This document shows positions 1,790 through 44,254 of a DNA stretch of 64,000 nucleotides, piece after piece. Where the stretch lies: IMG/VR virus record IMGVR_UViG_3300019764_000005, positions 1 to 64,000 of that record. One strand, written 5' to 3'. A program made the position numbers and the translations under genes. A model generated the notes under the pieces. That model was not told where the DNA came from. It worked only from the letters and a program-made list of their open reading frames with translations, and ran no database searches. The stretch comes from a virus. How positions within the stretch are numbered: the stretch's first letter is position 1; the number at the start of each line of letters is the position of its first letter.

Positions 1790-3154
1790 TTAAGCGCCTT
1801 GGAAAATGGTCCACTTAATCATACCGACTGCTCTTAAGCAACGCTCAGTAAGCCAGTGAATCTCATATCTGTCGGTAGTAGATGTATGGTCAGGAACCAT
1901 AGTACCACCAGCATAAGTAGTTTGCAATTTACGCGAGTAACCAGCTTTCGCTTTATACATTTGCGTAAGATATTGAATTGCTTCAGGAGCTATTCTGTCA
2001 TAAGAACCAGGCAACATGGCGCCAGCCTGAGAAGTCATTCCCATTGGAACCATCATTCCGTGAATCTGATCATCAGCATGAAATTGTGATGGATTCAAAG
2101 CAGTTGGATCTTTCAAAATATTCCATCCTGAATAATTGAACTCGTAAGTTCCACGACGGAAACCTTTAAATCCAAGATCAAGAACCCTTCCTTTAAGATC
2201 ATCATTGCCATACACACCATAATTGGCAGTAGCACCATCGAACCCAAGTTCTGCAGATAAGAAATCATCAATACCTAAAGCATGACGAGTGCCAATGTAC
2301 AATGCATTGTATTCCTCACCATTTATTTTATCCAAACGGTCTACTACACCATCAATATCGTCAATGGATGCCATTGGACCAGTAAAAGTATTTCCTCTAA
2401 CTCGAATAGAAGAGAACAAACCCTGGGTACCTTTATAGCCTGTCAAAGTCGATGTTCCAGAAATAGTGATATCCTCAAGCATTTGGAATTCTAGATTATC
2501 TAGGAATCTCTTGAAAGATTCTTCCTCATCCTCCATATACCAATAAGGAGATCCGTCGTTTGCATACAACCATGTAATGTTAGGTATGTCAGATCCATCA
2601 ACTGAGAATTGATCTTTAATGATAACTGGCGAAACATCGTAACGCTCGAAATCACGGGTTAAAGCTTTCTCTTTTCCGTCGGTTCCTTTTTTAAATTCAC
2701 CACCAATAACTCTTACCGTAAGAGCGGTAGTTCCAACAGTCCAAGCTGCAGAATTCTGTACGGCTGCCGTGAATGTATCGGCTGTAACTGCTGTCACAAT
2801 ACCAATCTCCTTACCTGCTGCTGCAGTAGAATAAACAAGAATCTTATCATTCAAACGAATCGAATGGGCAACGTAAGTAAATACATTAGCAGTTCGGGTA
2901 GTACCTGTGTGAACACGGTGTCTTCTTCCGTACTCACCCCAAATAGCAAGGTCAGAGTTTAATTCCTCTTCATAACCCATGGTGTCAAGGAAACCAGTTA
3001 TTGATTGAGGGTTGAATATGTTAACCAAGTCCGGCATCGCATCGGGCAAATACTGGTTGGTAAAGTCATACACAGAGCGGTAATTCGCTCCGGTAGCTTG
3101 AATATTATTGTTCGGTTCAAATATTTTCGCATCAGCGATTGCATCTATAGCCAT
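1790..3154 (-). CDS. Major capsid protein
   Basis: A 454-residue protein that forms the icosahedral shell. The N-terminal third contains an NQYLPDAMPD segment, then SITGFLDTMG and WGEYGRRHRVHTG, a pattern I associate with capsid proteins of crAss-like and related Bacteroidota podoviruses (recollection; no search was run). The length suits an HK97-fold capsid protein. It follows a scaffold-like gene with an 18-base gap and is followed by a strong terminator, the usual setting for the most abundant virion protein. The C-terminus lacks low-complexity tails. The main uncertainty is the exact phage family. Confidence 0.8.
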   Translation of the reverse strand: MAIDAIADAKIFEPNNNIQATGANYRSVYDFTNQYLPDAMPDLVNIFNPQSITGFLDTMGYEEELNSDLAIWGEYGRRHRVHTGTTRTANVFTYVAHSIRLNDKILVYSTAAAGKEIGIVTAVTADTFTAAVQNSAAWTVGTTALTVRVIGGEFKKGTDGKEKALTRDFERYDVSPVIIKDQFSVDGSDIPNITWLYANDGSPYWYMEDEEESFKRFLDNLEFQMLEDITISGTSTLTGYKGTQGLFSSIRVRGNTFTGPMASIDDIDGVVDRLDKINGEEYNALYIGTRHALGIDDFLSAELGFDGATANYGVYGNDDLKGRVLDLGFKGFRRGTYEFNYSGWNILKDPTALNPSQFHADDQIHGMMVPMGMTSQAGAMLPGSYDRIAPEAIQYLTQMYKAKAGYSRKLQTTYAGGTMVPDHTSTTDRYEIHWLTERCLRAVGMIKWTIFQGA

Positions 3155-5668: not shown

Positions 5669-5671
5669 ATG

Positions 5672-5744
5672 TGGACCATACCGGACTCGAACCAGTGACC
5701 TTATCCTTATGAGGGATCTGCTCTACCAACTGAGCTAAAGGTCC
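5672..5744 (-). tRNA. tRNA with CAT anticodon (elongator Met or Ile2)
   Basis: A cloverleaf of 73 bases has D arm GCTC-AGTTGGTA-GAGC, anticodon loop CTCATAA with anticodon CAT, and T loop TTCGAGT. The acceptor stem has one mismatch. No CCA is encoded. The CAT anticodon can be elongator Met or lysidine-modified Ile; the lack of three GC pairs in the anticodon stem argues against initiator. It is the second tRNA of a minus-strand tRNA transcript. Confidence 0.9.
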
Positions 5745-5749
5745 AATTG

Positions 5750-5858
5750 CGCGTCTTTTATATTAAGGACATTACTACGCGCTCCCTCCAGGAACTTTCA
5801 GCTCGTGCGCCCTTTATCCTTCTGTGGGGCGTTACAGTTTTTAATGAGCTACCTACGT
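5750..5858 (-). ncRNA. Structured spacer between two tRNAs
   Basis: The spacer between the tRNAs can form nested stems: AGCTC/GAGCT (5850-5846 with 5804-5800) enclosing CGCCC/GGGCG (5831-5827 with 5812-5808). It has no open frame. It may be a processing signal or a degenerate tRNA-like RNA; the family is not recognised. Confidence 0.3.
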
Positions 5859-5859
5859 G

Positions 5860-5932
5860 TAGCGGGACCAGGACTCGAACCTAGAACCTCTGGGATATGA
5901 GCCCAGCGAAATACCAATTTCTCCACCCCGCG
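5860..5932 (-). tRNA. Initiator-like tRNA-fMet (CAT)
   Basis: The 73-base cloverleaf starts CGCGGGGTGGAG as bacterial initiator tRNAs do. Position 1 (C) faces T and does not pair, and the anticodon stem CTGGG/CCCAG ends in three consecutive G-C pairs around loop CTCATAT. Both are established hallmarks of initiator tRNA. No CCA is encoded. It is the first product of a promoter at 5944-5974. An initiator tRNA in a phage could favour start-codon use on late mRNAs (inference). Confidence 0.9.
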
Positions 5933-7659: not shown

Positions 7660-8414
7660 TTAAAACCTCCTTCTTTTTGTTCAGTTTTCAAATCCTCATC
7701 TTCCCATCTGCGTGACGTTATCCAGCCCTGAGCCATCTTTGGAGTTTTCCCACTGGCAAGTAAAGCAGGTCTTCTTTTAGCTTCTAATTCAGCCGCAGCA
7801 TATATCTCTTCACAAAGAGATGGTCTCAACTCTGGTATATCCAACCACGATTGAGCCGCATCTGCTCTCCCGCTTTTGTATTTGAATTTATCCCAAAAGA
7901 TTTTAAAGGCTTCAAGTCGTTTACCTTTTAATTTCTTTTTTCTATTGGTTAAAATAAACTCTTCCTTGCTTTCTTCATCGGGAGATGAAGTACTAATAAT
8001 AGTTTCTTTACTTGTTTCTTCTTTACTTATTCCTTCTTTATTTATTTGTGGCGAGTTGCCCAACGTAGGTTCATCCAACGTAGGTTTATCCAACGTAGGG
8101 TTTTCCGACTTAGGTTGATTATCAGAAGGTTCCATGTAAAGATCGTATTCTACGCCTCCAAGAACACCTTTATTATCTCTAACTCTTCTCCTAACAACAT
8201 AGCGCGATTCCTCAAGCTCTTTAATTGATGATCTTATGGCATCTCTGCCCTCTTTAAGCACCGATTCGAGTCCTCGTATGGTATAGTCCCAATTTTCTGG
8301 CAAGGATAGCATAAAGGCTAATAATCCCTTTGATCGCAATGACAGTTTCTTATCTCTTAGTGGAATATTTGATAAGACTGTAAAATTTGTTTTCTGAACA
8401 TGTATCTTTCCCAT
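7653..8414 (-). CDS. Replication initiator / helicase loader-like wHTH protein
   Basis: A 253-residue protein with an N-terminal winged-helix region (about residues 1-105: RSKGLLAFMLSLPENW, IRSSIKELEESRYVVRRR) found in phage and plasmid initiators. A repetitive linker follows with PTLDKPTLDEPTLGN, then a C-terminal DnaD-like helical region (WDKFKYKSGRADAAQSW, ending GWITSRRW) that is likely to contact the helicase. It lies directly upstream of dnaB with overlap. The linker-repeat type is known from phage replisome organisers. Iteron-like repeats lie just upstream of its start. Confidence 0.75.
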   Translation of the reverse strand: MGKIHVQKTNFTVLSNIPLRDKKLSLRSKGLLAFMLSLPENWDYTIRGLESVLKEGRDAIRSSIKELEESRYVVRRRVRDNKGVLGGVEYDLYMEPSDNQPKSENPTLDKPTLDEPTLGNSPQINKEGISKEETSKETIISTSSPDEESKEEFILTNRKKKLKGKRLEAFKIFWDKFKYKSGRADAAQSWLDIPELRPSLCEEIYAAAELEAKRRPALLASGKTPKMAQGWITSRRWEDEDLKTEQKEGGFKW

Positions 8415-8451
8415 ATCTAATCATTCTTTTGTTTATTTTTCAGATCTTTTC

Positions 8452-8613
8452 GTGTTCATTTCTTCAGTGTGTTAATTGTCGCTGAACACAGTTTTTAAGT
8501 GAACACACATAACATGTGCGCCGTAGCTACTATAATAGCGATAATAAGCCCGATAAGGTATAAATAGACACTATGGTAGCTGTTTTATACCCGATCGGTA
8601 TCATGTTTATACC
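8452..8613. other. Iteron-like region, candidate replication origin
   Basis: The 212-base gap upstream of the initiator holds two repeat sets. GTGTTCA/TGAACAC occurs at 8452, 8483 and 8500, with a variant GTGTTAA at 8468. GGTATAAA/TTTATACC occurs at 8557, 8584 and 8606. Repeats next to an initiator gene are typical of iteron origins (established); origin activity here is inference. The repeats could also be operators for the initiator operon. Confidence 0.4.
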
Positions 8614-8626
8614 ATAACACATTCAA

Positions 8627-9475
8627 TTAGAGTAATTCGTATTTTGGCATCATACATTCCATGCCAGTCCGACTAATTTCAAAATCTAATATAACTACAC
8701 CTATTGGTGTGGCTGGATATGTTTTTGCATGCACATAGCCTCTTTTTTTACCCGAAAATTCTTCCTTGAGTGTTGGAGCTTGAATGTACCACTTGTTCTG
8801 ATACTTTACAGAACCATTATCTACGAATCTCTCTATTTTTAATGGCAGTATCCATGATGTGTGAATGTGTTCGCAAATCCAAATATCGGCATCAGGATAG
8901 CGACCTATTAGTAAATCAACAGACAATACACCTTTCGATCTGGTACCTCCCGAGATGGGCTGATGGGAAAAGTAGATGTTTTTAGTTGCTTTACCATTCC
9001 CTCTACTATGTCTAATCTTAATCCAGCCAGCCAGGTCTCCACAGATAATTTCATGCTTTGTGGTTTCATTTAACCGGTCTACCATCATTTTGATCATATC
9101 GATTCCGTGACGCCTTATTTGCACCTCCTCGTGGTTACCGAGATTGAAAGCCAGTATTTTATCTTTAAATGGTTTATAGAAATCGCAAGATTCTTCAATT
9201 ACAGCATTTATATAGTCATCTCTTTTAAGGGAATCTTTTAATGCTGATTTGGCGGCTCTTGGATCTGCGAAATTTTGCATCACATCAAATGAATCACCCC
9301 CAAAAATTAAATAAGCTTTCGGATATTTTTTAACTATCTTTTTCAAGAAATTCAATCTCGATTTCTTTGAGTCATTGTGCATGTCAGCAACCCAAATAAT
9401 CTTCAGTTCATTGCCTTCTTTTTTAAAATCAATAACTTGACATGAATCATCTGTTTTTTTATTCTCTAAAATCAT
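8627..9475 (-). CDS. Calcineurin-like metallophosphoesterase
   Basis: This 282-residue protein carries the full metallophosphoesterase motif set: VADMHND (DxH), FGGDSFD (GGD), LGNHEE (GNHE), FSHQP and CEHIHTS in place of GHxH. These bind two metal ions and cleave phosphoesters (established). The substrate cannot be told from sequence; phage members include DNA nucleases/phosphatases, and SbcD-like partners are absent here. It sits upstream of the iteron region on the same strand as the replication genes, which suggests nucleic acid processing (inference). Confidence 0.85.
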   Translation of the reverse strand: MILENKKTDDSCQVIDFKKEGNELKIIWVADMHNDSKKSRLNFLKKIVKKYPKAYLIFGGDSFDVMQNFADPRAAKSALKDSLKRDDYINAVIEESCDFYKPFKDKILAFNLGNHEEVQIRRHGIDMIKMMVDRLNETTKHEIICGDLAGWIKIRHSRGNGKATKNIYFSHQPISGGTRSKGVLSVDLLIGRYPDADIWICEHIHTSWILPLKIERFVDNGSVKYQNKWYIQAPTLKEEFSGKKRGYVHAKTYPATPIGVVILDFEISRTGMECMMPKYELL

Positions 9476-9499
9476 AGCTGTTGTTTTTGATTTAATTAA

Positions 9500-9569
9500 T
9501 TTCGTCCATTAAAACGGACGATAACAGTCGATGAAAGCACATGAAAAAACGTGCTTTATCTTGGTGTTA
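9500..9569. repeat. 70-base inverted repeat, copy A
   Basis: This segment is the reverse complement of 21505-21574 with one mismatch. It contains two hairpins, CGTCC/GGACG and AAAGCAC/GTGCTTT, and overlaps the 3' end of the preceding gene's stop. It probably ends transcripts, but its near-identical conservation 12 kb away is unusual. Confidence 0.85.
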
Positions 9570-9881
9570 CCCACCATAATGTGAGTTAAGCACCTCTGTT
9601 ATCTTATGGTCGGTTGGTTCATACCAAAAATCGGCAACTGGAATAGTTTCATTATCATCAGACCAGTTGGTTAAATAAACACCATCACTCTTTTTAACAA
9701 CATCGCAAGTTGCCTCGAGCAGTTCTCCCTTTTGGTACACTATCTTGTGTCCTGGCATTATTTTCACACCGTTCATATCTGTCATTAAAATATTACGGTG
9801 GGTAACATTGTATAAACCCAATTGCTTTTCGTAGGCTTCAACAATGTTTTTTGCTTCTAAGTATTGTCCCTCTGTTATCAT
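9567..9881 (-). CDS. Hypothetical protein (104 residues)
   Basis: A small soluble protein with helical N-terminus (about 1-25) and a beta-rich region after about residue 30 (MPGHKIVYQKGELLEATCDVVKK looks like a small barrel). No family recognised. Its stop codon touches the 70-base inverted repeat. It lies in the same orientation as the XRE regulator upstream. Confidence 0.55.
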   Translation of the reverse strand: MITEGQYLEAKNIVEAYEKQLGLYNVTHRNILMTDMNGVKIMPGHKIVYQKGELLEATCDVVKKSDGVYLTNWSDDNETIPVADFWYEPTDHKITEVLNSHYGG

Positions 9882-9923
9882 ATCTTTGTTCTTTTAATTA
9901 CGCAACTGTGTTTATACTTACCG

Positions 9924-10196
9924 TTATAGATCCAATTCCTCACCTATTCGTTTTATCAAGTCGAAATGCTTGTTAGATTTGTCAATTAGAGGATATAGTG
10001 AAAGTAAATTTCTTGCCTCACGTAAAAGATTGTCTGAATTCAAAAGGACCTTGTAAATATCTCTTTTGACCTCATCAGGCATCTTTCTCTTATTATTTAG
10101 CCATTGAGATAATTGATGCACAGACTTGCCAATTTTTTCTGCTACAAAGGTGTTTTTTAAACCCTTTTCTTTAATTAAATTTTGAATATTTTCCAT
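9924..10196 (-). CDS. XRE-family helix-turn-helix regulator
   Basis: This 90-residue protein has an N-terminal HTH: KNTFVAEKIGKSVHQLSQWLNNKRKMPDE, in two helices separated by a turn, as in phage Cro/CI repressors (established family). The C-terminal 35 residues are helical and could dimerise. It is transcribed away from NinG across a 137-base gap, so it probably controls both directions (inference). Confidence 0.85.
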   Translation of the reverse strand: MENIQNLIKEKGLKNTFVAEKIGKSVHQLSQWLNNKRKMPDEVKRDIYKVLLNSDNLLREARNLLSLYPLIDKSNKHFDLIKRIGEELDL

Positions 10197-10298
10197 TGTT
10201 CTAATTTTAAGTACTCTGCAAATGTAGGTTAAATTTCATTAACAAAAAACACTTAAACCTTATTTTAAATTAGTCTAAATATGAATTGTATAGTTTTA

Positions 10299-10329
10299 TT
10301 GACATTGTAGATTATTCTTTTTAGATTTG
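10299..10329 (+). promoter_or_regulatory. Promoter of the NinG operon
   Basis: TTG at 10299-10301 and TAGATTTG at 10322-10329 fit the Bacteroidota consensus with the 23-base step common here. The ATG at 10334 is so close to the expected start of transcription that the mRNA would be nearly leaderless. The site lies in the XRE/NinG divergent gap. Confidence 0.65.
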
Positions 10330-10333
10330 CCAT

Positions 10334-11002
10334 ATGATTAAAAAGAAATTGAAAGTCTGTAGAGGAATTGGGAAAGCTAAAGATTACGGCTGTGGAGATG
10401 ATAAGCTTATTCATAAATATGGCTTATGCACTGGATGTTTTGCTAAATGGCTTTATAATTCAGAAGAAGGACAGCAGGTTCTTAAAAAGAGTGTTTTGCG
10501 AGCGAAAGGGAAAGTTCGCACAGATAATAAGATTAAGCACAATCAAGCCAGGCAAGATATTAAAAAGAAGGCTGAATTTGAAAAAGATCTTCAGACCGAA
10601 GTAAATACTATCGTTAGACTTATTGATGTAGATAAAGGATGTATTAGTTGTGGGCATGGATGGAAAGAAGGTTGGACAAGACAAGCACATGCAGGACATT
10701 ACTATTCTGTAGGATCAGACCCTACTTTACGCTTTAATTTTTTTAATATTTGGAAACAGTGCAGTATTTGTAATAATTTTAAAGGTGGCAACGAAAGAGC
10801 TTATGCTGACGGAATTATAGAGCGTTACGGGAAGATGACTCTTCTGAGGATGAATGGTCTTAAAGCTAAGTATAAAGAAATTCACCTGGCAAAACATGAG
10901 CTTATCGAAAAGATTAAGATTGCCAGGAAGATTAAAAGAGCTATAAAATCTGGTAAAGATTACACCAGAGATGAGTTGAATGACCAATTAGGTATTTATT
11001 AA
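10334..11002 (+). CDS. NinG/Rap-like recombination nuclease
   Basis: A 222-residue protein with two N-terminal cysteine pairs (about residues 9-35) and the NinG core: CISCGHGW, QAHAGHYYSVGSDPTLRFN, then KQCSICNNFKGGN. In lambda, NinG/Rap is a structure-specific endonuclease acting on recombination intermediates (established). The C-terminal third is a basic helical region. It is the first gene of a plus-strand operon, under the divergent XRE control region. Confidence 0.85.
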   Translation: MIKKKLKVCRGIGKAKDYGCGDDKLIHKYGLCTGCFAKWLYNSEEGQQVLKKSVLRAKGKVRTDNKIKHNQARQDIKKKAEFEKDLQTEVNTIVRLIDVDKGCISCGHGWKEGWTRQAHAGHYYSVGSDPTLRFNFFNIWKQCSICNNFKGGNERAYADGIIERYGKMTLLRMNGLKAKYKEIHLAKHELIEKIKIARKIKRAIKSGKDYTRDELNDQLGIY

Positions 11003-12004: not shown

Positions 12005-14419
12005 TTAAATTGGTAATTGAGTTTCTTGATTTAAATTTAACGGTTGGTTCTCGATCGGTGCATTCTTAGCAAATTGTTTTAATTCCTGCTCAGTTTCGAA
12101 ATCCTGTGAACCGGTATTTTTCTGTCTTTGATCGATCATTCTAGACTGCTGAGAAGCTTGTATGCCAGTTCTCTTGTCCTTGCGATCTTCTTTCATTCTA
12201 TCAGATCTAACAAGGTAATTATTCTTCTTATTCTCGATATCCGATTCATACATGTACTTCATTTTAAGAAGTAGAGCATCACCTTCAGTTTTCTTAGATA
12301 TAAGCAAGGCTTCTTTTCTTCCTTCGAAAGTAATCTTAGCCTGATCAGCTTGCATTTGCATTTGGAAGGTTCTTTGCTTTTCCTTTTCAACAAAAATGGC
12401 AGTTTGCCTTCTACCATCTTCAGTAGCTTTGATTTGTTGAAGTTTTTCTTCTTGTATTTGTCTTCTCCTCTTTTTAATCCTGATCTTAAGATCCTTATTG
12501 GCTAGTTTAAGATTACGAGTATTTAAGAGATCAATTCTATCTGGAATATCGATATCACCTTTCTGAATGGCAAGATCAAGCGTAGCTTTAAAATTAGCTC
12601 TCTCTTGAGCATCTGGAGCTACATCAATTGTAATAGAATATTCATACATGTGAAGCTGACTTCCTTCCTGAAGAACCTTCACGTTATTCTCACCAAGTAA
12701 ATTCATTATTGCACGATTGTACTTTTCACCGTACATGCTCATATTTTGAATTCGTGAAACTATAAATTCAGAACTTCTCTGAAGGATAGACATTGTTCCG
12801 TCAAGAATCCTTTTAGTTGCAGTATTACTTGCATTTATAGCTAACTGTTGGGCTCCTACCAATGTGTTGTCGAGCGATTGAGATCCATCCCTTGCCGGAT
12901 TTACTCCTGTCACATCATAAAGCATCTTTACATTGTGATTGTAATAAACAATCAATTGCTGAAGTTCAGAAGATATCCCACCAGGGATAGGCTTGATTGG
13001 TTCCCCATTTATGTACTCTCCCTCTAAATTTCGACTTGAATACAATAAGTCTCCTCGTTGATTATAAATGTCAATAAGGTCAGGTACTCTCAAAACATCT
13101 CCATTCCCTAAATCAACTTCAGCTAACGCATCGATGTCGATAGATACACCAGACGGTTTGGCTGTTGATATTAATTGCTGTATTTTCAGTTTCGTTATCT
13201 GAAGATCATCGGCAATACTTACCATTCTTTTAACCATGGATGGTGTGCTCAATTCGAATACAGAATACGGTGGCATTACGTTATTAATGTCAGAATTTGG
13301 ACGAACCATATCATGCATTAATTGGTAGTTGTAGACGAATTGTGTCCCGGTAATATAAAAACCTTCAAACCACACATCGTAGGTTCCTTGTAGTTTTTCA
13401 CTCCTTGAATTTTCATGGACCTCAAATGTGTCTTTTTGTTTACTAATCTTACCGTACTTCTTCTTCTTGTAAGTTTCGTTCAATGTTGTCTCGAAGCAGA
13501 ATTCCATCACCTCAACATTGTAATTGTATAATTCTTCCTGACGGAAATCTTTTGGATTACCAAGTATGCCCAGAGAGCCATTAATCATGCTCTTTAATTG
13601 TTCGTCAGAGAATTTATTTCCACTGGCTTTCTTAATCTCCTCAATCTTCATTATTCGGACTTCTCCAAAATAATAACAACCACGCTTATCCTCTGTGCGT
13701 TCTGGATCAAATGAATATATGAAGTTTTGCGGATCTATTCGTCTTTGCAATATACCCACTGATGGATCAACTATATTTCTGGCAATACCGATACCATAAG
13801 TAATAAGATCCTCGATTATTAATCTGTAAAGATTTTCCCAATGGTTTATGTCGAATATTTTAGCAAGGCATATCTCAATGGCTATTTCTTGTGGCTGCAC
13901 AAACTCATCCATATGAACATCAAGTTCTTCTTCGGTTTCCGGAACAAATCCCATGGGGGAGAAATCCATTCCAGTTGCCTGAGTAAACGCATCGGTAAAT
14001 GGCTTGGCGAGCATTTCCGTTTCCAGATTGTTTCTATACCTTTCTTTCCTGCTCATGGATTGCTTATCAATGCCATTTGCTTGAATTTCAAATATATCAA
14101 TTGGATACCCATCTCGTATAATATCGATAAATTTCGGAATGATTTGAAAATAAGTCCAATCGAACGCTGTCCATGCCTTATCCTGACTCACATTGAGGAT
14201 ATCTTTAAATTTAGATGTATCCACATCTCCTGTTCTGAAAGAATCTAGGTATTGAAGCTCACTTCTTCTTTGAATCAATTTCTGATCCTGTCTTGCTCCG
14301 TATAGCCATTCAGTTTCAATGAATCGTGCATAAGCCAATCCATAAGCATCGGATTTCTTAGTATCATTATCAGATAAAGGATCTGGATAATTCTGAAATA
14401 ACGTGTTAACTGCTCCCAT
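12005..14419 (-). CDS. Portal protein
   Basis: This 804-residue protein forms the dodecameric ring through which DNA enters and leaves the head. The length suits the large portals of crAss-like podoviruses. The N-terminal core contains EDLITYGIGIARNIVDPSVG and a wing-like middle, followed by QQLIVYYNHNVKMLYDVTGV and a long helical segment SLDNTLVGAQQLAINASNTATK, typical of portal stem and crown regions. The last 170 residues are highly charged coiled coil. It starts 6 bases after the terminase stop, giving the standard terminase-portal order. Confidence 0.85.
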   Translation of the reverse strand: MGAVNTLFQNYPDPLSDNDTKKSDAYGLAYARFIETEWLYGARQDQKLIQRRSELQYLDSFRTGDVDTSKFKDILNVSQDKAWTAFDWTYFQIIPKFIDIIRDGYPIDIFEIQANGIDKQSMSRKERYRNNLETEMLAKPFTDAFTQATGMDFSPMGFVPETEEELDVHMDEFVQPQEIAIEICLAKIFDINHWENLYRLIIEDLITYGIGIARNIVDPSVGILQRRIDPQNFIYSFDPERTEDKRGCYYFGEVRIMKIEEIKKASGNKFSDEQLKSMINGSLGILGNPKDFRQEELYNYNVEVMEFCFETTLNETYKKKKYGKISKQKDTFEVHENSRSEKLQGTYDVWFEGFYITGTQFVYNYQLMHDMVRPNSDINNVMPPYSVFELSTPSMVKRMVSIADDLQITKLKIQQLISTAKPSGVSIDIDALAEVDLGNGDVLRVPDLIDIYNQRGDLLYSSRNLEGEYINGEPIKPIPGGISSELQQLIVYYNHNVKMLYDVTGVNPARDGSQSLDNTLVGAQQLAINASNTATKRILDGTMSILQRSSEFIVSRIQNMSMYGEKYNRAIMNLLGENNVKVLQEGSQLHMYEYSITIDVAPDAQERANFKATLDLAIQKGDIDIPDRIDLLNTRNLKLANKDLKIRIKKRRRQIQEEKLQQIKATEDGRRQTAIFVEKEKQRTFQMQMQADQAKITFEGRKEALLISKKTEGDALLLKMKYMYESDIENKKNNYLVRSDRMKEDRKDKRTGIQASQQSRMIDQRQKNTGSQDFETEQELKQFAKNAPIENQPLNLNQETQLPI

Positions 14420-14425
14420 GGTATA

Positions 14426-17089
14426 TTAATTTAATCTGGTTCCAACTTTTCCTGTATTATCAAATCTTTTAAATAATGATTGTACTGCCTCTTTCTTAAC
14501 TTCGTTATTTGCTGCAGGTCTTCTCGTTTTAATATTGCAAGCCATTAATGCCAATGATGACGAGATAGAAGCATCTCTCTTGGTTCTATTTTTCGAATCA
14601 TACGAAAGCCAATCAAGTAGAGTATCATTAAACATCATATCACCATACGTGTCATCATCTTTTTCGCCCACATGATGCTCTACATAGCTCTCAATTGCTG
14701 ATGTTTGCATCTGGATTACATTCTCACTTGTAGAAGGTATTCCCCCATACTTCTTTTCATCCTCTGTTAACTTATCTGGTAATTTATCAGGTCTGTTTAA
14801 CGAGAATTTACGATACCCACGCTCCCTAAGGGCTTCAACTAAATTACGAACATTATTTTCAATCAAAGCAGGCATTCCGAAAAACACCATTGCCATAATA
14901 ACATCCTCGGTAAATATTTTTTTCTCTTCCGGTCTGTGAATATATTCCAGAAAGAAGAAATTACTCGGAGCCTTCACGTTTTCTTTGGTGAAACCATGCA
15001 TAGACCCCTTCGAGCCATCCTTGCTTTTATCAGTACGATATGGGTCAATACCGAAAGCACCCACATCTGAATTGCCTGGCATTAGAATATTTCCTCTTCT
15101 TATCACATTATTCCTAAGCTCAACAGGAGGCATCCAGCTTATAAGGAATCTTCCATTTGGATCATCTCTCCACTCAACCACCCCACAATCTCTAACCCCT
15201 TTTTGCCATCTGAAATTACCTCTTCTTAATTTCGAATTAAGACCAAGTTTGTTCTTTGGCAATAAGTTATTGTAGGCAACCTGAGTAATAATATTGCCCT
15301 GGTTAAACATACACATTCCTTCAGATACTGCAAACCCATCAGCTTCTTCAATCGGGGTTTTCCTTAAATATTCTACCCTGGCACGTATGTTATTGCCTAA
15401 ATGATCAAGTTCACGTTGAATATGAGTCTTTATTCCGATGTCTACAATCTCCCCATCCATCGTTTTGGTGGGTTTTAATGGATCTTCTAGTATAGCGTAG
15501 CCATATCTGTCAATATAACCTTCATAGTGCTCATACACCGAAATAAATATCTTATACAGATACGATTTTGTTTGACCGTTCTCGTTCCTGTCGTTTACAT
15601 CTGAATCGTAATAGATTTTTTTGTATCTATCCCCGGCTAATGCTAATTCATCTTCAGCATCTTTGCCAGTTACATTTTCAACTGTAGAGAATAGGAATAT
15701 TTTTCCTGTTATCCTGGCACCCTTGGTGGCAGATTTACGGACCATCTCAAAGTGAGATATGGTATTACCATTTTGCTTCTTCCATTTACTGAACTCATCC
15801 CCTAAATAGAGTCTTGTCGCGTCACCATCGTAACTGTCCTCCGATGTAGATTCATAATTACAGTATGTGTTTAGGGAATTATCAACTCTGTCCTTGCTTT
15901 TGTTATTTTTGGATAACATTTGCGAAGGCGAACGGAAATCAAGTTTGGATGCAGCAGTTTCATTTATACAGATTGGCTTAAAGTAAAATGGCAAGTTAGC
16001 AAACATATATGTCTGTCTGCGGAAGTTCTTTGAGGCATCTGAGTCTTTTTTAGATGTCATTCCAAAAATCTTATCTCTTTCAAATGTTGATTTACAAAGA
16101 GAAAATGACATAAACATATCAGTTGCACCAAGACGACGAATCTTCTCAAGGATCAGTCCTGCACTTCTTTGATCACACCATACAGCCTCCATGAATATGA
16201 AGAGCTTTTGTTGTGCTTTTGTGAAATAATAAAACCCTCCATCTGCACCGGTCCGACACCGTGACATATGAAACCAATGGGCGCCACTGATGTATTCAGC
16301 AGTGCCATTGTTTAGAAACCAATAGCCATTTCTTTTATGATTAAACTCCTCCTCTATAAAATCTTCGAAACCTTTAGAGGAACGTTCATTTAATGCCTTT
16401 GGTGGATCGATCCTTCTCCAATATTGCTCTGCTTTAACTCTATTGTTATTTGCAATATTGAGTCGCTTGGGTTTCTTTGGTAGTGCAATTCGTAGATCAG
16501 AAATGGTAATTATATCTCCAACTGTTCCTTCTGGATCAATTATTACAGCATCTATTCCTGGGGCGTATTTTGCTTTGCTTCCCTTTTTTGCGAATTTATC
16601 AGCATAGATCTCCGCATATCCCTGGTTATAATCAACTTCTTTCAGCACGATCTCGTCCTCAGAAACAACTTTTCTAAGCTCATCTATGTGCTCGTAGATT
16701 TCCATCGCGTCTTCAAATGCCACAGATTTAGATTCCATGGCTTGCAAGACATTATTCCCATTGTCTGATATCTTATCCACCTTGATTGGAGCATCAAGTG
16801 AAGCTATAAGGTGCTCAACTGATTCGGTTCCTGCTGTTATTAAACTATCAATAACAGTTCTAGCCCAATCCTGTTGTCTGTAATCCATCTCAAGTACACC
16901 TGAGATTATTTTTTTTGCCCGGACAAATGCTTGTTTTTTAACTTGAAGATCTTTTTTCCCGTGCAATACTCTTGTTTCCAACTTGGTTTTATCATCAACT
17001 CTTGTCTGCGTTGGCTCAATGGACAAAATCTTTATAATTTCGCCCACGGCTTTTTTAGACTGATTTATGAGTTGTTTTTTAATGTCCAT
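14426..17089 (-). CDS. Terminase large subunit
   Basis: The packaging motor and nuclease, about 887 residues from ATG 17089; a TTG start 12 bases upstream is less likely. The ATPase P-loop is a deviant type, LEKIRRLGATD (about residue 315), with the lysine before the arginines, as in many viral terminases. Walker B is RLYLGDEFSKW (about 430). The RNase H-like nuclease has FGIDPYRTDKS (about 680) and DWLSYDSKNRTKRDAS near the C-terminus. An N-terminal extension of about 280 residues precedes the ATPase. It overlaps the GroES-like gene by 11 bases. Confidence 0.9.
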   Translation of the reverse strand: MDIKKQLINQSKKAVGEIIKILSIEPTQTRVDDKTKLETRVLHGKKDLQVKKQAFVRAKKIISGVLEMDYRQQDWARTVIDSLITAGTESVEHLIASLDAPIKVDKISDNGNNVLQAMESKSVAFEDAMEIYEHIDELRKVVSEDEIVLKEVDYNQGYAEIYADKFAKKGSKAKYAPGIDAVIIDPEGTVGDIITISDLRIALPKKPKRLNIANNNRVKAEQYWRRIDPPKALNERSSKGFEDFIEEEFNHKRNGYWFLNNGTAEYISGAHWFHMSRCRTGADGGFYYFTKAQQKLFIFMEAVWCDQRSAGLILEKIRRLGATDMFMSFSLCKSTFERDKIFGMTSKKDSDASKNFRRQTYMFANLPFYFKPICINETAASKLDFRSPSQMLSKNNKSKDRVDNSLNTYCNYESTSEDSYDGDATRLYLGDEFSKWKKQNGNTISHFEMVRKSATKGARITGKIFLFSTVENVTGKDAEDELALAGDRYKKIYYDSDVNDRNENGQTKSYLYKIFISVYEHYEGYIDRYGYAILEDPLKPTKTMDGEIVDIGIKTHIQRELDHLGNNIRARVEYLRKTPIEEADGFAVSEGMCMFNQGNIITQVAYNNLLPKNKLGLNSKLRRGNFRWQKGVRDCGVVEWRDDPNGRFLISWMPPVELRNNVIRRGNILMPGNSDVGAFGIDPYRTDKSKDGSKGSMHGFTKENVKAPSNFFFLEYIHRPEEKKIFTEDVIMAMVFFGMPALIENNVRNLVEALRERGYRKFSLNRPDKLPDKLTEDEKKYGGIPSTSENVIQMQTSAIESYVEHHVGEKDDDTYGDMMFNDTLLDWLSYDSKNRTKRDASISSSLALMACNIKTRRPAANNEVKKEAVQSLFKRFDNTGKVGTRLN

Positions 17090-17684
17090 CCCAAGTACCA
17101 ATTATTTGTCTTGTTCTCATGCGGTACAATTTTTCACCTTTGATTTTGAATTCATATTCAGCATCGTTCTTGAATACTACATTATCACCTTCATTGTATC
17201 CTTTTGCTGCCAATTCCTTATTTCCGTATTTAATGGTGCCAAGATTAGGTTTTTCTGTGTATTGATTTACCGTCAACACCTCACCTTTTTTCTGAACAAT
17301 CTCATTCTTTACCGGCTTTACGAAGCAGAAGGGTTCAAGGCAGAAAAACTCATCTCCTCTTTGAATGCCGTAAATTTGATCAAGTGGACAGCCATATAAT
17401 CCTTCCTGACGATTGATCTCGTAGGTACCATGCATATCCTTGCCATCCATTGACTTTTTCCTTTTGACAATGTTGTGATGGAAATAAACGATATCTCCAA
17501 CCTCAAGGACAGTATCATACAGATCAGGCTTCGAAACAACTGTCCCGTATCTAATCGTCTTGTCGATATCATTAAAGCACATTACGAAATGAATCATAGT
17601 GTCTCCAACTTCCTTTCCCCTCACGTACATGTCAGGAACATGAATAAGCACTTCTTGCAGTAATACTATTTCTTTTTTATGCAT
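17079..17684 (-). CDS. GroES-like fold protein, possibly two domains
   Basis: A 201-residue protein with segments resembling co-chaperonin barrels. RYGTVVSKPD then EVGDIVYFHHN recalls the GroES GxVxxxG...VGDxVxF pattern, and the C-terminus repeats a similar pattern (NLGTIKYGNKELAAKGYNEG, DNVVFKNDAEYEFKIKGEKL, then YRMRTRQIIG). Two barrels in one chain would be unusual. T4 gp31 shows that phages replace GroES (established). It lies between terminase and the GroES/GroEL genes. Similarity is judged by eye, and a structural role remains possible. Confidence 0.5.
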   Translation of the reverse strand: MHKKEIVLLQEVLIHVPDMYVRGKEVGDTMIHFVMCFNDIDKTIRYGTVVSKPDLYDTVLEVGDIVYFHHNIVKRKKSMDGKDMHGTYEINRQEGLYGCPLDQIYGIQRGDEFFCLEPFCFVKPVKNEIVQKKGEVLTVNQYTEKPNLGTIKYGNKELAAKGYNEGDNVVFKNDAEYEFKIKGEKLYRMRTRQIIGTWDGH

Positions 17685-17928
17685 GCGATTCGATTATCTT
17701 TTTCCAATCATATTCAGTAACCACGATATTATTCTGAGTCACCATTATTTTTTTCCATAAGGCAACCGAGTTGTGTTTATCATTGACATACACTTTCGCA
17801 ATAAGAAATCCATCTTTAAACTCCTCTTCAATAGAGCTCACGTTGGTTTCCCCGTTGCAAACCGAAGATCCAATCTTAAATCCTACTTTTCTTTCGTTCT
17901 CACCATATGAGATTTGTCTAACTTGCAT
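17677..17928 (-). CDS. Hypothetical protein in chaperonin cluster
   Basis: An 83-residue beta-rich protein from ATG 17928; another in-frame ATG at 17946 lies inside a strong stem-loop. No motif recognised. It overlaps the following GroES-like gene by 8 bases and ends EYDWKKIIESHA. Its place between GroES and terminase suggests a virion-assembly role (inference). Confidence 0.5.
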   Translation of the reverse strand: MQVRQISYGENERKVGFKIGSSVCNGETNVSSIEEEFKDGFLIAKVYVNDKHNSVALWKKIMVTQNNIVVTEYDWKKIIESHA

Positions 17929-17942
17929 AGTAAGTAATTTAT

Positions 17943-18013
17943 ACATCCTTTGATAGAGCTAAATCAAACGACACGAATCGGAATCATTAGCTCTATCGGT
18001 GAACAAGGATGTG
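17943..18013. promoter_or_regulatory. Long stem-loop between GroES and downstream gene
   Basis: Two collinear stems occur: ACATCCTT/AAGGATGT (17944-17951 with 18005-18012) outside GATAGAGCTAA/TTAGCTCTATC (17952-17962 with 17987-17997). There is no poly-U, so it is not a plain terminator. In the minus transcript it would pair an AAGGATG segment containing the upstream ATG. It may be an attenuator, RNase site or translational control. Confidence 0.6.
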
Positions 18014-18022
18014 TGTTTAATA

Positions 18023-18301
18023 TTATTCGTAGTATCCTTTTACATCTTTAAGATCTAAGAATACAAACTTTTTACCATCTTCAACGATCTCGGTACCAGC
18101 GCTACTAAGATGAAACACCTCGACCCCAGGTTTGATGTTTTTTGTAAGTCCTGGAACATCATTACCGACATGAACGACCAATCCCTTTCGCATTCCACCA
18201 GACTTCCCGTTGGAGTTTGGAATATGAATTCCACCGGATGTCATTTCCGGTTTTTCTATTGGAGTTATAATCACTCCGCGTCCTTCTGCTTTTATTGCCA
18301 T
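18023..18301 (-). CDS. groES: Co-chaperonin GroES
   Basis: A 92-residue 10-kDa chaperonin that caps GroEL. It has the GroES order: an N-terminal strand (GRGVIITPIEKPEMTSGGIH), a mobile-loop-like segment (IPNSNGKSGGMRKGLVVHVG), KPGVEVFHLS in place of VGDxVLF, and a C-terminal VFLDLKDVKGYYE. The mobile loop is close to the usual GGI/V-x-I/L/P pattern. It starts next to groEL (gap of 2 bases), in the reverse of the usual groES-groEL order. Confidence 0.8.
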   Translation of the reverse strand: MAIKAEGRGVIITPIEKPEMTSGGIHIPNSNGKSGGMRKGLVVHVGNDVPGLTKNIKPGVEVFHLSSAGTEIVEDGKKFVFLDLKDVKGYYE

Positions 18302-18303
18302 AA

Positions 18304-19950
18304 TTAATCCAAGCTATCTACGATTATACATTCTGTTGTAAGTAACATTCCTGCTGCAGATGCAGCATTCTCGATTGCAACTCGCGCAACCTTCACAGGA
18401 TCAATAATGCCTGCAGCGTTCAAATCTTCAACCTCTTCAGTTAAAGCGTTCCATCCGAAAGAATGATTTTTTTTCTTAACTTCAGATATAATATCAGATA
18501 CAATCACTCTTTTATTAAAAAAAGATTCAAAGAATCCGATTTTATCACAAGACACGCCAGCATTCATTGCAATCTGTGTAATTGGTTTTTCAATCGCTTT
18601 TCTGACGATATTAATACCCATTTGCTCATCTTTAGTGCCTCCGATGATATTATCAAGTAAGTGTTGAACATGAATGAATGCCGATCCACCACCTGTTATA
18701 ATTCCTTCTTCAATAGCTGATCTAGTCGCCCATAAAGCATCATCAATACGATCAAGCTTTTCCTCAGCTTCAGTTTCCGACATGGCACCCACTGTAATTA
18801 CTGCAGCTTTACCAAGGAGACAACCGATTCTTTTTTCTATCTTATTACGATCATTCTTAGATAGCTCTGGATTAAGTTGAGAACGTAACTCCTTAGTTCT
18901 ATCCCCTATGATATCCTCGTCACCATAGCCAGAAATGATTGTGGTTTTGTCTTTTTTCACAATCACCTTTTCAGCAGAACCAAGCATTTCAACCGTGACA
19001 TCCTCGATGTTTATAGCTTTGCTGTCTGAAATTACAATCCCTCCAACAAGGGTTGCTATGTCTTCAAGTACATCTTTTTTAATTTCTCCTGAAAATGGAG
19101 CTTTAATGGCGGCACAGCGAATAGACTTTTTGAAATTATTGAAAGTCATGGTCGCTAAAGCCTCATCAACTATATCGTCGGCTATGATAATTAATGGTCG
19201 TGCTAATTGTGCAGCAATTGTCATAGCAGGTGTTATCTGACTTAATTGAGATAGAGTGATGTCACAAATCAAAATGATAGGATTCTCAAGAACAGACTGC
19301 ATTTTACTCATGTCAGTAAGAAAATACTTGTTGCATGCTCCTGATTGAATGTCAAATCCATCTACAATTTCAACCTTAGTTTCTTCGCCAATCACCCCTT
19401 TTGCGTTAACTATCCCCTCTCTTCCGACAGCTTTAATAGCTTCTGAGATAACATCACCAATTTCAGGATCATTATTTGCAGATACATTGGCAATAAAGTC
19501 AAGGTCTGATAAATCTTCTTTTATTGGTCGAGCTATTTCTTTTAACCCAGATACGATAACCCTTGTGGCTTCATCGATACCTCTTTTCAGTAAAATCGGA
19601 TTAATCCCTGAGTCTACAACCTTAAAACCTAAATTCAGAATAGCTGCTGCTAAAATAGTTGCGGTAGATGTTCCGTCACCCGCAGCATTTCTAGTCTTTG
19701 AAGCTGCTTCCTTTATAGCCTGTGCGCCTAAATCCTTATAAAGGTTTTTGAAGAAAATGCTCTCAGCTACACTTACACCATCCTTAGTGATTTGATGTTG
19801 TCTGAGATGGTTGTGAATGGCTACGTTTCTACCCTTTGCTCCAAGTGTCACAGCTACAGCCTGGGCAACTTCATTTGCACCGTCAAGAATCAAAGCTTTA
19901 GCATTTTTGCCAAATTTCAACTCCTTGTTCATTTTATTGTCCTCGTTCAT
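18304..19950 (-). CDS. groEL: Phage-encoded chaperonin GroEL
   Basis: This 548-residue protein is a full-length 60-kDa chaperonin that folds proteins inside a double ring. Key motifs are intact: KELKFGKNA, LGAKGRNVAI, ITKDGVSVAES, AGDGTSTATIL (ATP and magnesium site, about residue 90), DDALWATRSAIEEG with the catalytic Asp, and GGGSAF. A second ATG at 19932 (MNKELKFG) matches the usual GroEL start better. The C-terminus lacks the GGM repeat of bacterial GroEL. Phage GroELs are rare; it probably folds capsid or fibre proteins (inference). Confidence 0.95.
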   Translation of the reverse strand: MNEDNKMNKELKFGKNAKALILDGANEVAQAVAVTLGAKGRNVAIHNHLRQHQITKDGVSVAESIFFKNLYKDLGAQAIKEAASKTRNAAGDGTSTATILAAAILNLGFKVVDSGINPILLKRGIDEATRVIVSGLKEIARPIKEDLSDLDFIANVSANNDPEIGDVISEAIKAVGREGIVNAKGVIGEETKVEIVDGFDIQSGACNKYFLTDMSKMQSVLENPIILICDITLSQLSQITPAMTIAAQLARPLIIIADDIVDEALATMTFNNFKKSIRCAAIKAPFSGEIKKDVLEDIATLVGGIVISDSKAINIEDVTVEMLGSAEKVIVKKDKTTIISGYGDEDIIGDRTKELRSQLNPELSKNDRNKIEKRIGCLLGKAAVITVGAMSETEAEEKLDRIDDALWATRSAIEEGIITGGGSAFIHVQHLLDNIIGGTKDEQMGINIVRKAIEKPITQIAMNAGVSCDKIGFFESFFNKRVIVSDIISEVKKKNHSFGWNALTEEVEDLNAAGIIDPVKVARVAIENAASAAGMLLTTECIIVDSLD

Positions 19951-20068: not shown

Positions 20069-20168
20069 TGTAAATGTTATTTTATAACGGATAGTAATAT
20101 GACCTGTGCGACAATTACGCACGAACCTACAATAAATGAACGAATGTAAAATTTTTAAAAGCGAAGCG

Positions 20169-20936
20169 ATGGCAAAAAAAATATTATGGTTTAGTTGTGG
20201 AGTAACTTCTGCGGTAGCCTGTAAATTAGCCTTAGAAAAATACGGCAAAGAAAACTGTTTACTTGCCTATATAAAAATTGATAGTGCACACCCAGACAAT
20301 AAAAGATTTATTGCAGATTGTGAAAAGTGGTACGATGCACCAATTGAAATATTTAGAAGTGAAAAATACACCGACCAATACGATGTAATAAAGAAAACAA
20401 AGTACGTTAATGGCGTTGGCGGTGCAAGGTGTACTCTTGAATTAAAAAAGAAAGTGCGTTACGATATTGAAGAAAAATACGACTTTGACGGACAAATATT
20501 TGGTTTTGAGTTTACAAAGAAAGAAATAAACCGAGCGATAAGATTTGAAGAACAATACCCACACACAAAACCTATTTACCCACTAATTGAAAGCAAACTA
20601 AGTAAAGCTGAATGTTTAGGTATATTAACAAAAGCAGGGATTAAACAGCCAGCAATGTATGAATTAGGCTACCATAACAATAATTGCATTGGTTGTGTAA
20701 AAGGTGGTATGGGGTATTGGAATAAAATACGTGTAGATTTTCCAGAGCATTTTGAAAGAATGGTTGAAATGGAAGCGCATGCAAATAGAAGCTGTGTAAA
20801 AGGTGTATTTCTAAAAGATTTAGACCCAGAAAGAGGCAGACACGAACCGCCAATACTGCCCGATTGCGGTACATTTTGTGAGATTGAATTTGAACATATA
20901 ATAGATAATAAAGTAGAACAAATTTTAAAAGGTTAA
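20169..20936 (+). CDS. PAPS-reductase-like PP-loop protein
   Basis: A 255-residue protein of the adenine nucleotide alpha-hydrolase / PAPS reductase superfamily. It has the PP-loop WFSCGVTSAV (SGGxxS-like) near the N-terminus, GGARCTLELKKK, and a cysteine pair NNNCIGCVKGGMGYWNK with further cysteines at the C-terminus (CGTFCEIEFE), which could bind a metal or FeS centre. Members activate nucleotides and transfer sulfur, including DndC in DNA phosphorothioation (established); the substrate here is unknown. A longer start at 20136 is possible, but ATG 20169 fits the conserved beginning. Confidence 0.75.
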   Translation: MAKKILWFSCGVTSAVACKLALEKYGKENCLLAYIKIDSAHPDNKRFIADCEKWYDAPIEIFRSEKYTDQYDVIKKTKYVNGVGGARCTLELKKKVRYDIEEKYDFDGQIFGFEFTKKEINRAIRFEEQYPHTKPIYPLIESKLSKAECLGILTKAGIKQPAMYELGYHNNNCIGCVKGGMGYWNKIRVDFPEHFERMVEMEAHANRSCVKGVFLKDLDPERGRHEPPILPDCGTFCEIEFEHIIDNKVEQILKG

Positions 20937-44151: not shown

Positions 44152-44226
44152 GGCTTAGTAGCTCAGTTGGTAGAGCGCAAAGATTAAATTGTCTTTGGGT
44201 CGCGGGTTCGAGTCCCGCTTAAGCCA
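44152..44226 (+). tRNA. tRNA-like gene with enlarged anticodon arm
   Basis: The acceptor (GGCTTAG/TTAAGCC), D arm, T arm (GCGGG-TTCGAGT-CCCGC) and discriminator A are normal. The anticodon arm has 20 bases between positions 26 and 44 instead of 17: CAAAGA-TTAAATTG-TCTTTG, a six-pair stem with an eight-base loop. Identity is uncertain; TAA (Leu) is one reading. Eight-base loops occur in frameshift-suppressor tRNAs (established). Confidence 0.75.
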
Positions 44227-44254
44227 CAAAATTATTCACTAAAATTTATATAAA

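What the first reader, a model, noticed from the sequence alone, without database searches (positions are those of the whole stretch)
17079..19950. Complete GroEL/GroES pair plus a GroES-like third protein beside the terminase
Phage GroELs are uncommon, and this one has intact ATP-site motifs. GroES is adjacent, and a further 201-residue protein with two possible GroES-like barrels lies between it and the terminase. A dedicated folding machine for the capsid or giant fibres is plausible. GroEL lacks the GGM tail.
Basis: partly seen in the sequence, partly recalled or inferred. Interest (0 to 1): 0.7.

Follow-up and report, generated by a model that had tools for sequence, protein, structure and literature searches.

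The report
Phage chaperonin set with double-barrelled lid
A virus of Bacteroidota-type bacteria carries its own protein-folding cage (GroEL), its normal lid (GroES) and a second lid protein that looks like two lids fused together and sits beside the DNA-packaging gene; the trio is shared by many related phages already in databases, but the fused lid has apparently never been studied.

Summary
On the minus strand lie groEL (18304-19950), groES (18023-18301), a small gene (17677-17946) and a 201-residue protein (17079-17684), then terminase and portal. The 201-residue protein is a tandem GroES-like protein. Barrel 2 passes Pfam's Cpn10 cut-off. The AlphaFold2 model's best solved match, over nearly its full length, is the tandem chloroplast co-chaperonin Cpn20 (Foldseek E 1.5e-5; Z 10.6). 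Barrel 1 has a GroES-style mobile loop; barrel 2 has lost it.

The set is not unique. Sequenced isolates (Cellulophaga phi38:1, Flavobacterium elemo, Maribacter Panino) carry the same trio. More than 500 IMG/VR contigs carry the tandem protein; in 80 of 80 examined, terminase follows it. Single GroES accompanies GroEL in 24 of 24 contigs with GroEL. Phage phi19:3 keeps both co-chaperonins but has no GroEL. The window's GroEL is at most 46% identical to any sampled cellular GroEL, so it is not recently acquired from a sampled host.

Most likely this is a phage chaperonin system with two co-chaperonins, perhaps mixed into one seven-barrel lid as in chloroplasts, serving head-protein folding. Lid assembly and client are inferred. 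The gene set is known; the double-barrelled phage lid is a new variant.

The parts
18304..19950 (-). groEL, 548 aa group I-type chaperonin; ATPase residues intact, inter-ring residues changed, no GGM tail
   Evidence: PF00118 E 2.5e-61, phrog_5725 E 2.8e-127; residue map; trees
18490..18537 (-). 16-residue insert in GroEL (about residues 472-487) in the inter-ring contact segment; absent from E. coli, the two host GroELs shown and the other phage GroELs shown
   Evidence: alignment
18023..18301 (-). groES, 92 aa single-barrel co-chaperonin with canonical mobile-loop motif TSGGIHIP
   Evidence: PF00166 E 3.8e-10; PDB Cpn10 matches; profile comparison with cellular GroES Prob 99.4
17943..18012 (-). 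predicted RNA hairpin between groES and orf89
   Evidence: MFE -26.2 kcal/mol, z -4.19, 0 of 200 shuffles as stable; no Rfam family
17677..17946 (-). orf89, small beta protein of unknown function, just upstream of the tandem gene in relatives too; the conserved family start suggests the true start is Met7 (about 17928)
   Evidence: family alignment A5; AF2 pLDDT 85 without a clear fold match; synteny
17079..17684 (-). tandem GroES-like co-chaperonin, 201 aa
   Evidence: phrog_13932 E 4e-24; AF2 pLDDT 80, pTM 0.75; Foldseek to Cpn20 7ekq_R E 1.5e-5 and VIA Z 10.6 over 171 residues
17355..17684 (-). barrel 1 of the tandem protein (residues 1-110)
   Evidence: AF2/VIA alignment to Cpn20 from residue 1; weak in sequence (profile Prob 39-43)
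17553..17618 (-). mobile-loop region of barrel 1 (residues 23-44); the low-confidence stretch 34-41 of the model lies within it
   Evidence: aligned in register with the GGIVL loop of GroES; pLDDT under 50 at 34-41
17082..17354 (-). barrel 2 of the tandem protein (residues 111-201), GroES core without mobile-loop motif
   Evidence: PF00166 21.7 bits; profile comparison Prob 95-97; loop motif in 1 of 150 relatives
14426..17101 (-). terminase large subunit, 891 aa; overlaps the end of the tandem gene
   Evidence: phrog_6681 E 5.9e-133; relatives in Bacteroidota phages
12005..14419 (-). portal protein, 804 aa
   Evidence: phrog_6547 E 9e-105

Best explanation
The block encodes a phage chaperonin system: a GroEL ring, a normal single-barrel GroES and a Cpn20-like tandem co-chaperonin. 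GroEL binds a folding client and ATP; a lid built from GroES barrels binds the ring through mobile loops (GGIHIP loop of the single protein, barrel-1 loop of the tandem protein) and closes the chamber. In the favoured arrangement the tandem and single proteins mix so that barrels sum to seven (for example three tandem plus one single), as in chloroplast Cpn20/Cpn10. The likely client is a head protein of about 50 kDa (the capsid protein or another head protein made from the neighbouring late genes). Shown here: the genes, the two-barrel prediction, conserved ATP residues, fixed linkage to terminase, and co-occurrence with single GroES. Inferred: lid assembly, stoichiometry and client.
For: Families and cut-offs. 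AF2 of the 201-aa protein from 48 natural homologues, best solved match the tandem co-chaperonin Cpn20, followed by single GroES/Cpn10 chains and T4 gp31. ATP residues kept. Relatives keep the tandem gene ahead of terminase in 80 of 80 loci. All 24 GroEL-bearing contigs also carry a single GroES next to it. All four near-complete named genomes tested that have GroEL also have single and tandem proteins, and phi19:3, which lacks GroEL, still keeps both co-chaperonins. Chloroplast Cpn20 and Cpn10 form functional hetero-oligomers of seven GroES domains (PMC5780408). The GroEL of phi38:1 was detected by mass spectrometry in infected cells and in free-virion samples (PMC13288928), so in a relative the system is expressed.
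Against: Barrel 1 is only weakly GroES-like by sequence (Prob 39-43). Barrel 2 lacks the mobile-loop motif. The tandem gene is in the packaging cluster, and in most relatives GroEL-GroES is elsewhere in the genome. GroEL residues used for GroES and substrate binding are altered (Y199A, L234T, V263T, V264F). No oligomer was modelled. No client evidence exists.
Confidence: 0.6

Rival explanations
1. The tandem protein is not a lid but a head-assembly or DNA-packaging factor that reuses the GroES fold, working with terminase or portal.
For: Ahead of terminase in 80 of 80 loci, in the region where small terminase genes often lie; kept in phi19:3, which has no GroEL; mobile loop lost in barrel 2 and divergent in barrel 1 of the window and phi38:1.
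Against: The best full-length fold match is a co-chaperonin. phi19:3 also keeps a single GroES. The relatives have another small gene between the tandem gene and terminase, homologous to the N-terminal extension of the window's terminase, that is a better candidate for a terminase-associated part.
Confidence: 0.2
2. Two separate lids (a different arrangement within the chaperonin reading): the single GroES serves the phage GroEL, and the tandem protein retargets the host GroEL, like T4 gp31.
For: Single GroES is always next to GroEL while the tandem gene is elsewhere in most relatives; phi19:3 has the tandem gene without a GroEL; as in gp31, both barrels are too short for the GroES roof loop (PMC6318259).
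Against: phi19:3 also keeps a single GroES without GroEL, so the pairing of single GroES with phage GroEL is not strict. A lid of even-numbered barrels faces a seven-fold ring, a mismatch that chloroplasts appear to solve by mixing (PMC5780408).
Confidence: 0.25
3. The trio is a recently captured or decaying host operon without a specific role.
For: GroEL sits inside the Bacteroidota-type GroEL radiation (97/99 support).
Against: No sampled cellular GroEL above 46% identity; all ORFs and ATP residues intact; the same set is kept across highly diverged phages.
Confidence: 0.03

Closest known systems
Cellulophaga phage phi38:1 (Pervagoviridae), GroEL gp005, Cpn10 gp007, tandem gp089
   Same: Same three components; tandem gene (194 aa, about 31% identical to the window's) directly upstream of terminase with a small gene before it. 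Cpn10 is listed as a core protein of the family (PMC8776804).
   Different: GroEL and GroES lie far from the packaging cluster; GroEL only about 33% identical.
Flavobacterium elemo phages, Maribacter phage Panino, Podoviridae sp. ctfjg026
   Same: GroEL + single GroES + tandem protein beside terminase.
   Different: Chaperonin pair separate from the tandem gene; the barrel-2 loop region is shorter.
Cellulophaga phage phi19:3 (Pachyviridae)
   Same: Tandem GroES (200 aa) ahead of terminase, plus a single GroES.
   Different: No GroEL in the complete genome.
Chloroplast Cpn20 (PDB 7ekq chains Q/R)
   Same: Two GroES barrels head to tail, about 200 aa, coexisting with a single-domain Cpn10 (PMC5780408).
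   Different: Both Cpn20 domains keep a GGV-type mobile loop (seen in the alignment); the phage protein keeps it only in barrel 1; 14-16% identity.
T4 gp31
   Same: Phage-encoded GroES-fold protein; lacks the roof loop (PMC6318259); structural match Z 6.4.
   Different: Single barrel; works with host GroEL.
Phage EL chaperonin
   Same: Phage-encoded GroEL-type ATPase with ring contacts unlike those of GroEL (PMC7185714).
   Different: It did not interact with E. coli GroES and is proposed to work without encapsulation (PMC7185714).

Membership tests
Group I chaperonin (GroEL/Cpn60) | Cpn60 family match over the whole length | tested here: met
   PF00118 residues 28-545, 208 bits against a 34.3 cut-off; PDB GroEL matches over residues 9-545
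Group I chaperonin (GroEL/Cpn60) | ATP/Mg residues D52, D87, D398 and the GDGT motif | tested here: met
   All present; T90 is Ser, P33 is Ala
Group I chaperonin (GroEL/Cpn60) | Residues of the E. coli double-ring interface (R452, E461, S463, V464); not defining for the family, but for its usual ring architecture | tested here: not met
   T, S, D, K plus a 16-residue insert; these positions vary in the other tandem-GroES phages too
Group I chaperonin (GroEL/Cpn60) | Seven-fold ring and GroES-dependent folding | not testable with these tools
   Needs purified protein
GroES/Cpn10 (92-aa protein) | Cpn10 family match and GGI mobile loop | tested here: met
   40.1 bits against 21.1; loop TSGGIHIP
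GroES/Cpn10 fold (201-aa protein) | GroES-like barrel 2 | tested here: met
   21.7 bits against 21.1; Prob 95-97 against cellular GroES; VIA Z 8-9 to GroES chains
GroES/Cpn10 fold (201-aa protein) | GroES-like barrel 1 | tested here: inconclusive
   Sequence profile Prob only 39-43, though in register; fold alignment to Cpn20 covers residues 1-199
Plastid Cpn20 family | Two GroES domains head to tail in one chain | tested here: met
   AF2 model against 7ekq_R, Z 10.6, 171 residues, rmsd 4.6
Plastid Cpn20 family | Mobile loop with GGV/GGI motif in both domains | tested here: not met
   Barrel 2 lacks the motif in 149 of 150 relatives, so it works like Cpn20 at most and is not filed as a member
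Plastid Cpn20 family | Forms a lid with seven GroES domains on Cpn60 | not testable with these tools
   Needs biochemistry or multimer prediction
T4 gp31 | Single-barrel phage co-chaperonin without roof loop | tested here: not met
   Two barrels here; roof segments are short in both
phrog_13932 phage co-chaperonin family | Profile match over most of the length | tested here: met
   E 4e-24, residues 35-196 of 201

The most novel reading that the evidence does not exclude
Phages independently evolved the chloroplast solution: a natural mixed lid of tandem and single GroES subunits summing to seven barrels, with only some barrels carrying mobile loops, so that the lid is asymmetric by construction and specialised for a phage head protein. 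This would be a Cpn20-like lid outside plastids.
Probability: 0.3. Interest if true: 0.7.

Novelty: new variant of a known kind. Interest (0 to 1): 0.45.

Why it matters
A complete phage-encoded chaperonin with two different co-chaperonins, one double-barrelled, in cultivated phages (phi38:1, elemo, Panino) makes testable how an even-numbered lid caps a seven-fold ring outside chloroplasts, and why phages whose hosts already have a GroEL carry their own. phi19:3 (co-chaperonins without GroEL) and Gundel (none found) give natural contrasts. The strict linkage to terminase also suggests that folding and head assembly are coupled in a widespread group of Bacteroidota phages.

Tried and rejected
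A single-sequence scan of IMG/VR for the tandem protein found no relative, and likewise for the terminase; alignment queries were needed. phmmer of the 201-aa protein against the PDB gave nothing; the family profile's only significant hits were GroES chains aligned to barrel 2. Weak tblastn hits of the tandem protein to Streptomyces capsid proteases and an Enterobacter internal virion protein (E 0.4-0.7) were rejected as chance. The idea that the small orf89 is a further GroES barrel found no support: no fold match above Z 4.7. A recent host origin of GroEL was rejected for the hosts sampled. One origin of GroEL for the window and the phi38:1-type phages is neither shown nor rejected: the free trees put the window with G026, but a tree holding the window with the tandem phages (G026 excluded) was not rejected (p-AU 0.70; a second test did not finish); long branches make this unsure. 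Consensus promoter and terminator scans were not above shuffles. Marine et al. 2017 on virioplankton chaperonins was not held.
Full report
Observation. GroEL matches PF00118 at E 2.5e-61 and the single GroES matches PF00166 at E 3.8e-10; the 201-aa protein matches the phage family phrog_13932 'co-chaperonin GroES' at E 4e-24 and PF00166 over its second half just above the curated cut-off. The first two and the PHROG match are far beyond chance.

What the 201-aa protein is. AlphaFold2 with 48 natural homologues gave pLDDT 80 and pTM 0.75, with low confidence at residues 34-41, inside the presumed mobile loop. Foldseek's best solved structures are chains R and Q of 7ekq, the tandem co-chaperonin of a chloroplast Clp complex (chain R is Cpn20; E 1.5e-5 and 2.4e-4), then single GroES/Cpn10 chains. 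VIA-align gives Z 10.6 over 171 residues spanning 1-199 for 7ekq_R, Z 8-9 for GroES against barrel 2, and Z 6.4 for T4 gp31. Profile comparison with cellular GroES gives Prob 95-97 for barrel 2 but only 39-43 for barrel 1; the barrel-1 alignment is in register, placing its loop on the GGIVL mobile loop. A strict GG(I)xFI-type motif is seen in the barrel-1 loop of 57 of 150 relatives and in the barrel-2 loop of 1 of 150. The window's own barrel-1 loop (VGDTMIHFV) is divergent. Both barrels are too short between the strands to hold the GroES roof hairpin, as in gp31 (PMC6318259). So two barrels are well supported by predicted fold, barrel 2 also by sequence, and barrel 1 mainly by fold.

GroEL and GroES. 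The catalytic residues are kept. The four inter-ring positions changed in the single-ring mutant SR1 (from my own knowledge) are T, S, D and K here, next to a 16-residue insert, so ring stacking may differ; this is a prediction. Several apical residues that bind substrate and GroES in E. coli are altered (Y199A, L234T, V263T, V264F), while Y203, F204 and L259 are kept. The tail lacks GGM, as in all 15 GroELs of the tandem-phage set. The best cellular match among 198 Bacteroidota genomes is 46% identical; the genome-contig scan, which selects by short motifs, gave at most 45%. In the careful tree the protein falls inside the Bacteroidota-type radiation (97/99), pairs with viral record G026 (98/98; both long branches) and has no close host sister.

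Relatives and anatomy. The same trio is in Cellulophaga phi38:1, Flavobacterium elemo, ctfjg026 and Maribacter Panino. Terminase relatives are all in Bacteroidota phages or an unassigned podophage. In the best 80 loci a terminase relative lies within about 1.3 kb downstream in all, usually after one small gene, and the orf89-like gene lies just upstream in nearly all where that stretch is present. Of 37 distinct contigs screened, 24 hold GroEL and all 24 hold a single GroES beside it; no contig without GroEL showed a single GroES, though many are fragments. phi19:3, complete, has single and tandem proteins but no GroEL; Gundel has none detected. In the window and in G026 all three genes form one cluster; in G026 the 193-aa protein is a very divergent tandem candidate, matching the family profile only over part of barrel 1 (E 1.8e-5).

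How it most likely works. Shown: gene content, fold prediction, intact ATP site, fixed linkage and co-occurrence. Known from relatives: phi38:1 GroEL is made during infection and found in free-virion samples (PMC13288928). From the literature: chloroplast Cpn20 mixes with Cpn10 into lids of seven GroES domains (PMC5780408), and gp31 lets GroEL fold a 56-kDa capsid protein (PMC6318259). Inferred: the tandem and single phage proteins make a mixed or alternative lid for a GroEL ring, and a head protein is the client; the window's candidate capsid protein (1790-3154, 454 aa, phrog_13704) is of suitable size. The giant fibre-sized proteins are too large to be encapsulated. Rivals are a packaging role and separate lids for host and phage GroEL; the second is a variant of the chaperonin reading rather than its opposite.

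Known or new. GroEL in phi38:1-like phages is published (PMC5332604), 'cpn10' is a listed core protein of Pervagoviridae (PMC8776804), and Panino's GroEL and GroES are noted (PMC11590407). No held paper was found that describes a tandem phage GroES; the library is incomplete. I therefore rate the gene set as known and the double-barrelled lid as a new variant of a known kind.

Noticed in passing
window 17943-18012 (-): Strong predicted RNA hairpin between groES and orf89 (stems of 8 and 11 pairs, z -4.19) without a T-run; may separate two transcription units.
   Followed up: partly
window 14426-17101 (-): The window's terminase (residues about 85-164) contains, fused, the small protein that is a separate gene between the tandem GroES and terminase in many relatives (HMM E 3.5e-8); possibly a small-terminase-like part.
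   Followed up: partly
window 44152-44227 (+): tRNA gene called by ARAGORN with an undetermined amino acid and a four-base anticodon (aaat); also found by Rfam's tRNA model at 56.8 bits.
   Followed up: no
window 5671-5932 (-): Two tRNA-Met(CAT) genes close together; one could be a tRNA-Ile read with lysidine.
   Followed up: no
window 20136-20936 (+): PAPS-reductase-like gene (PF01507, E 9e-4, below the curated cut-off) divergent from groEL.
   Followed up: no
L284 (NC_021789, phi19:3): Complete phage with single and tandem GroES but no GroEL: a natural test of whether the lids act on host GroEL.
   Followed up: partly
L010 (IMGVR_UViG_3300005338_000010) 8016-10653: Distant relative with GroEL, GroES and a very divergent 193-aa tandem candidate in one cluster, with portal before terminase (reversed order).
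   Followed up: partly
L094-L173: Some IMG/VR GroEL contigs encode GroELs with GGM tails (10 of 45) and some nest with host GroELs; a part may be host contamination or recent captures.
   Followed up: no
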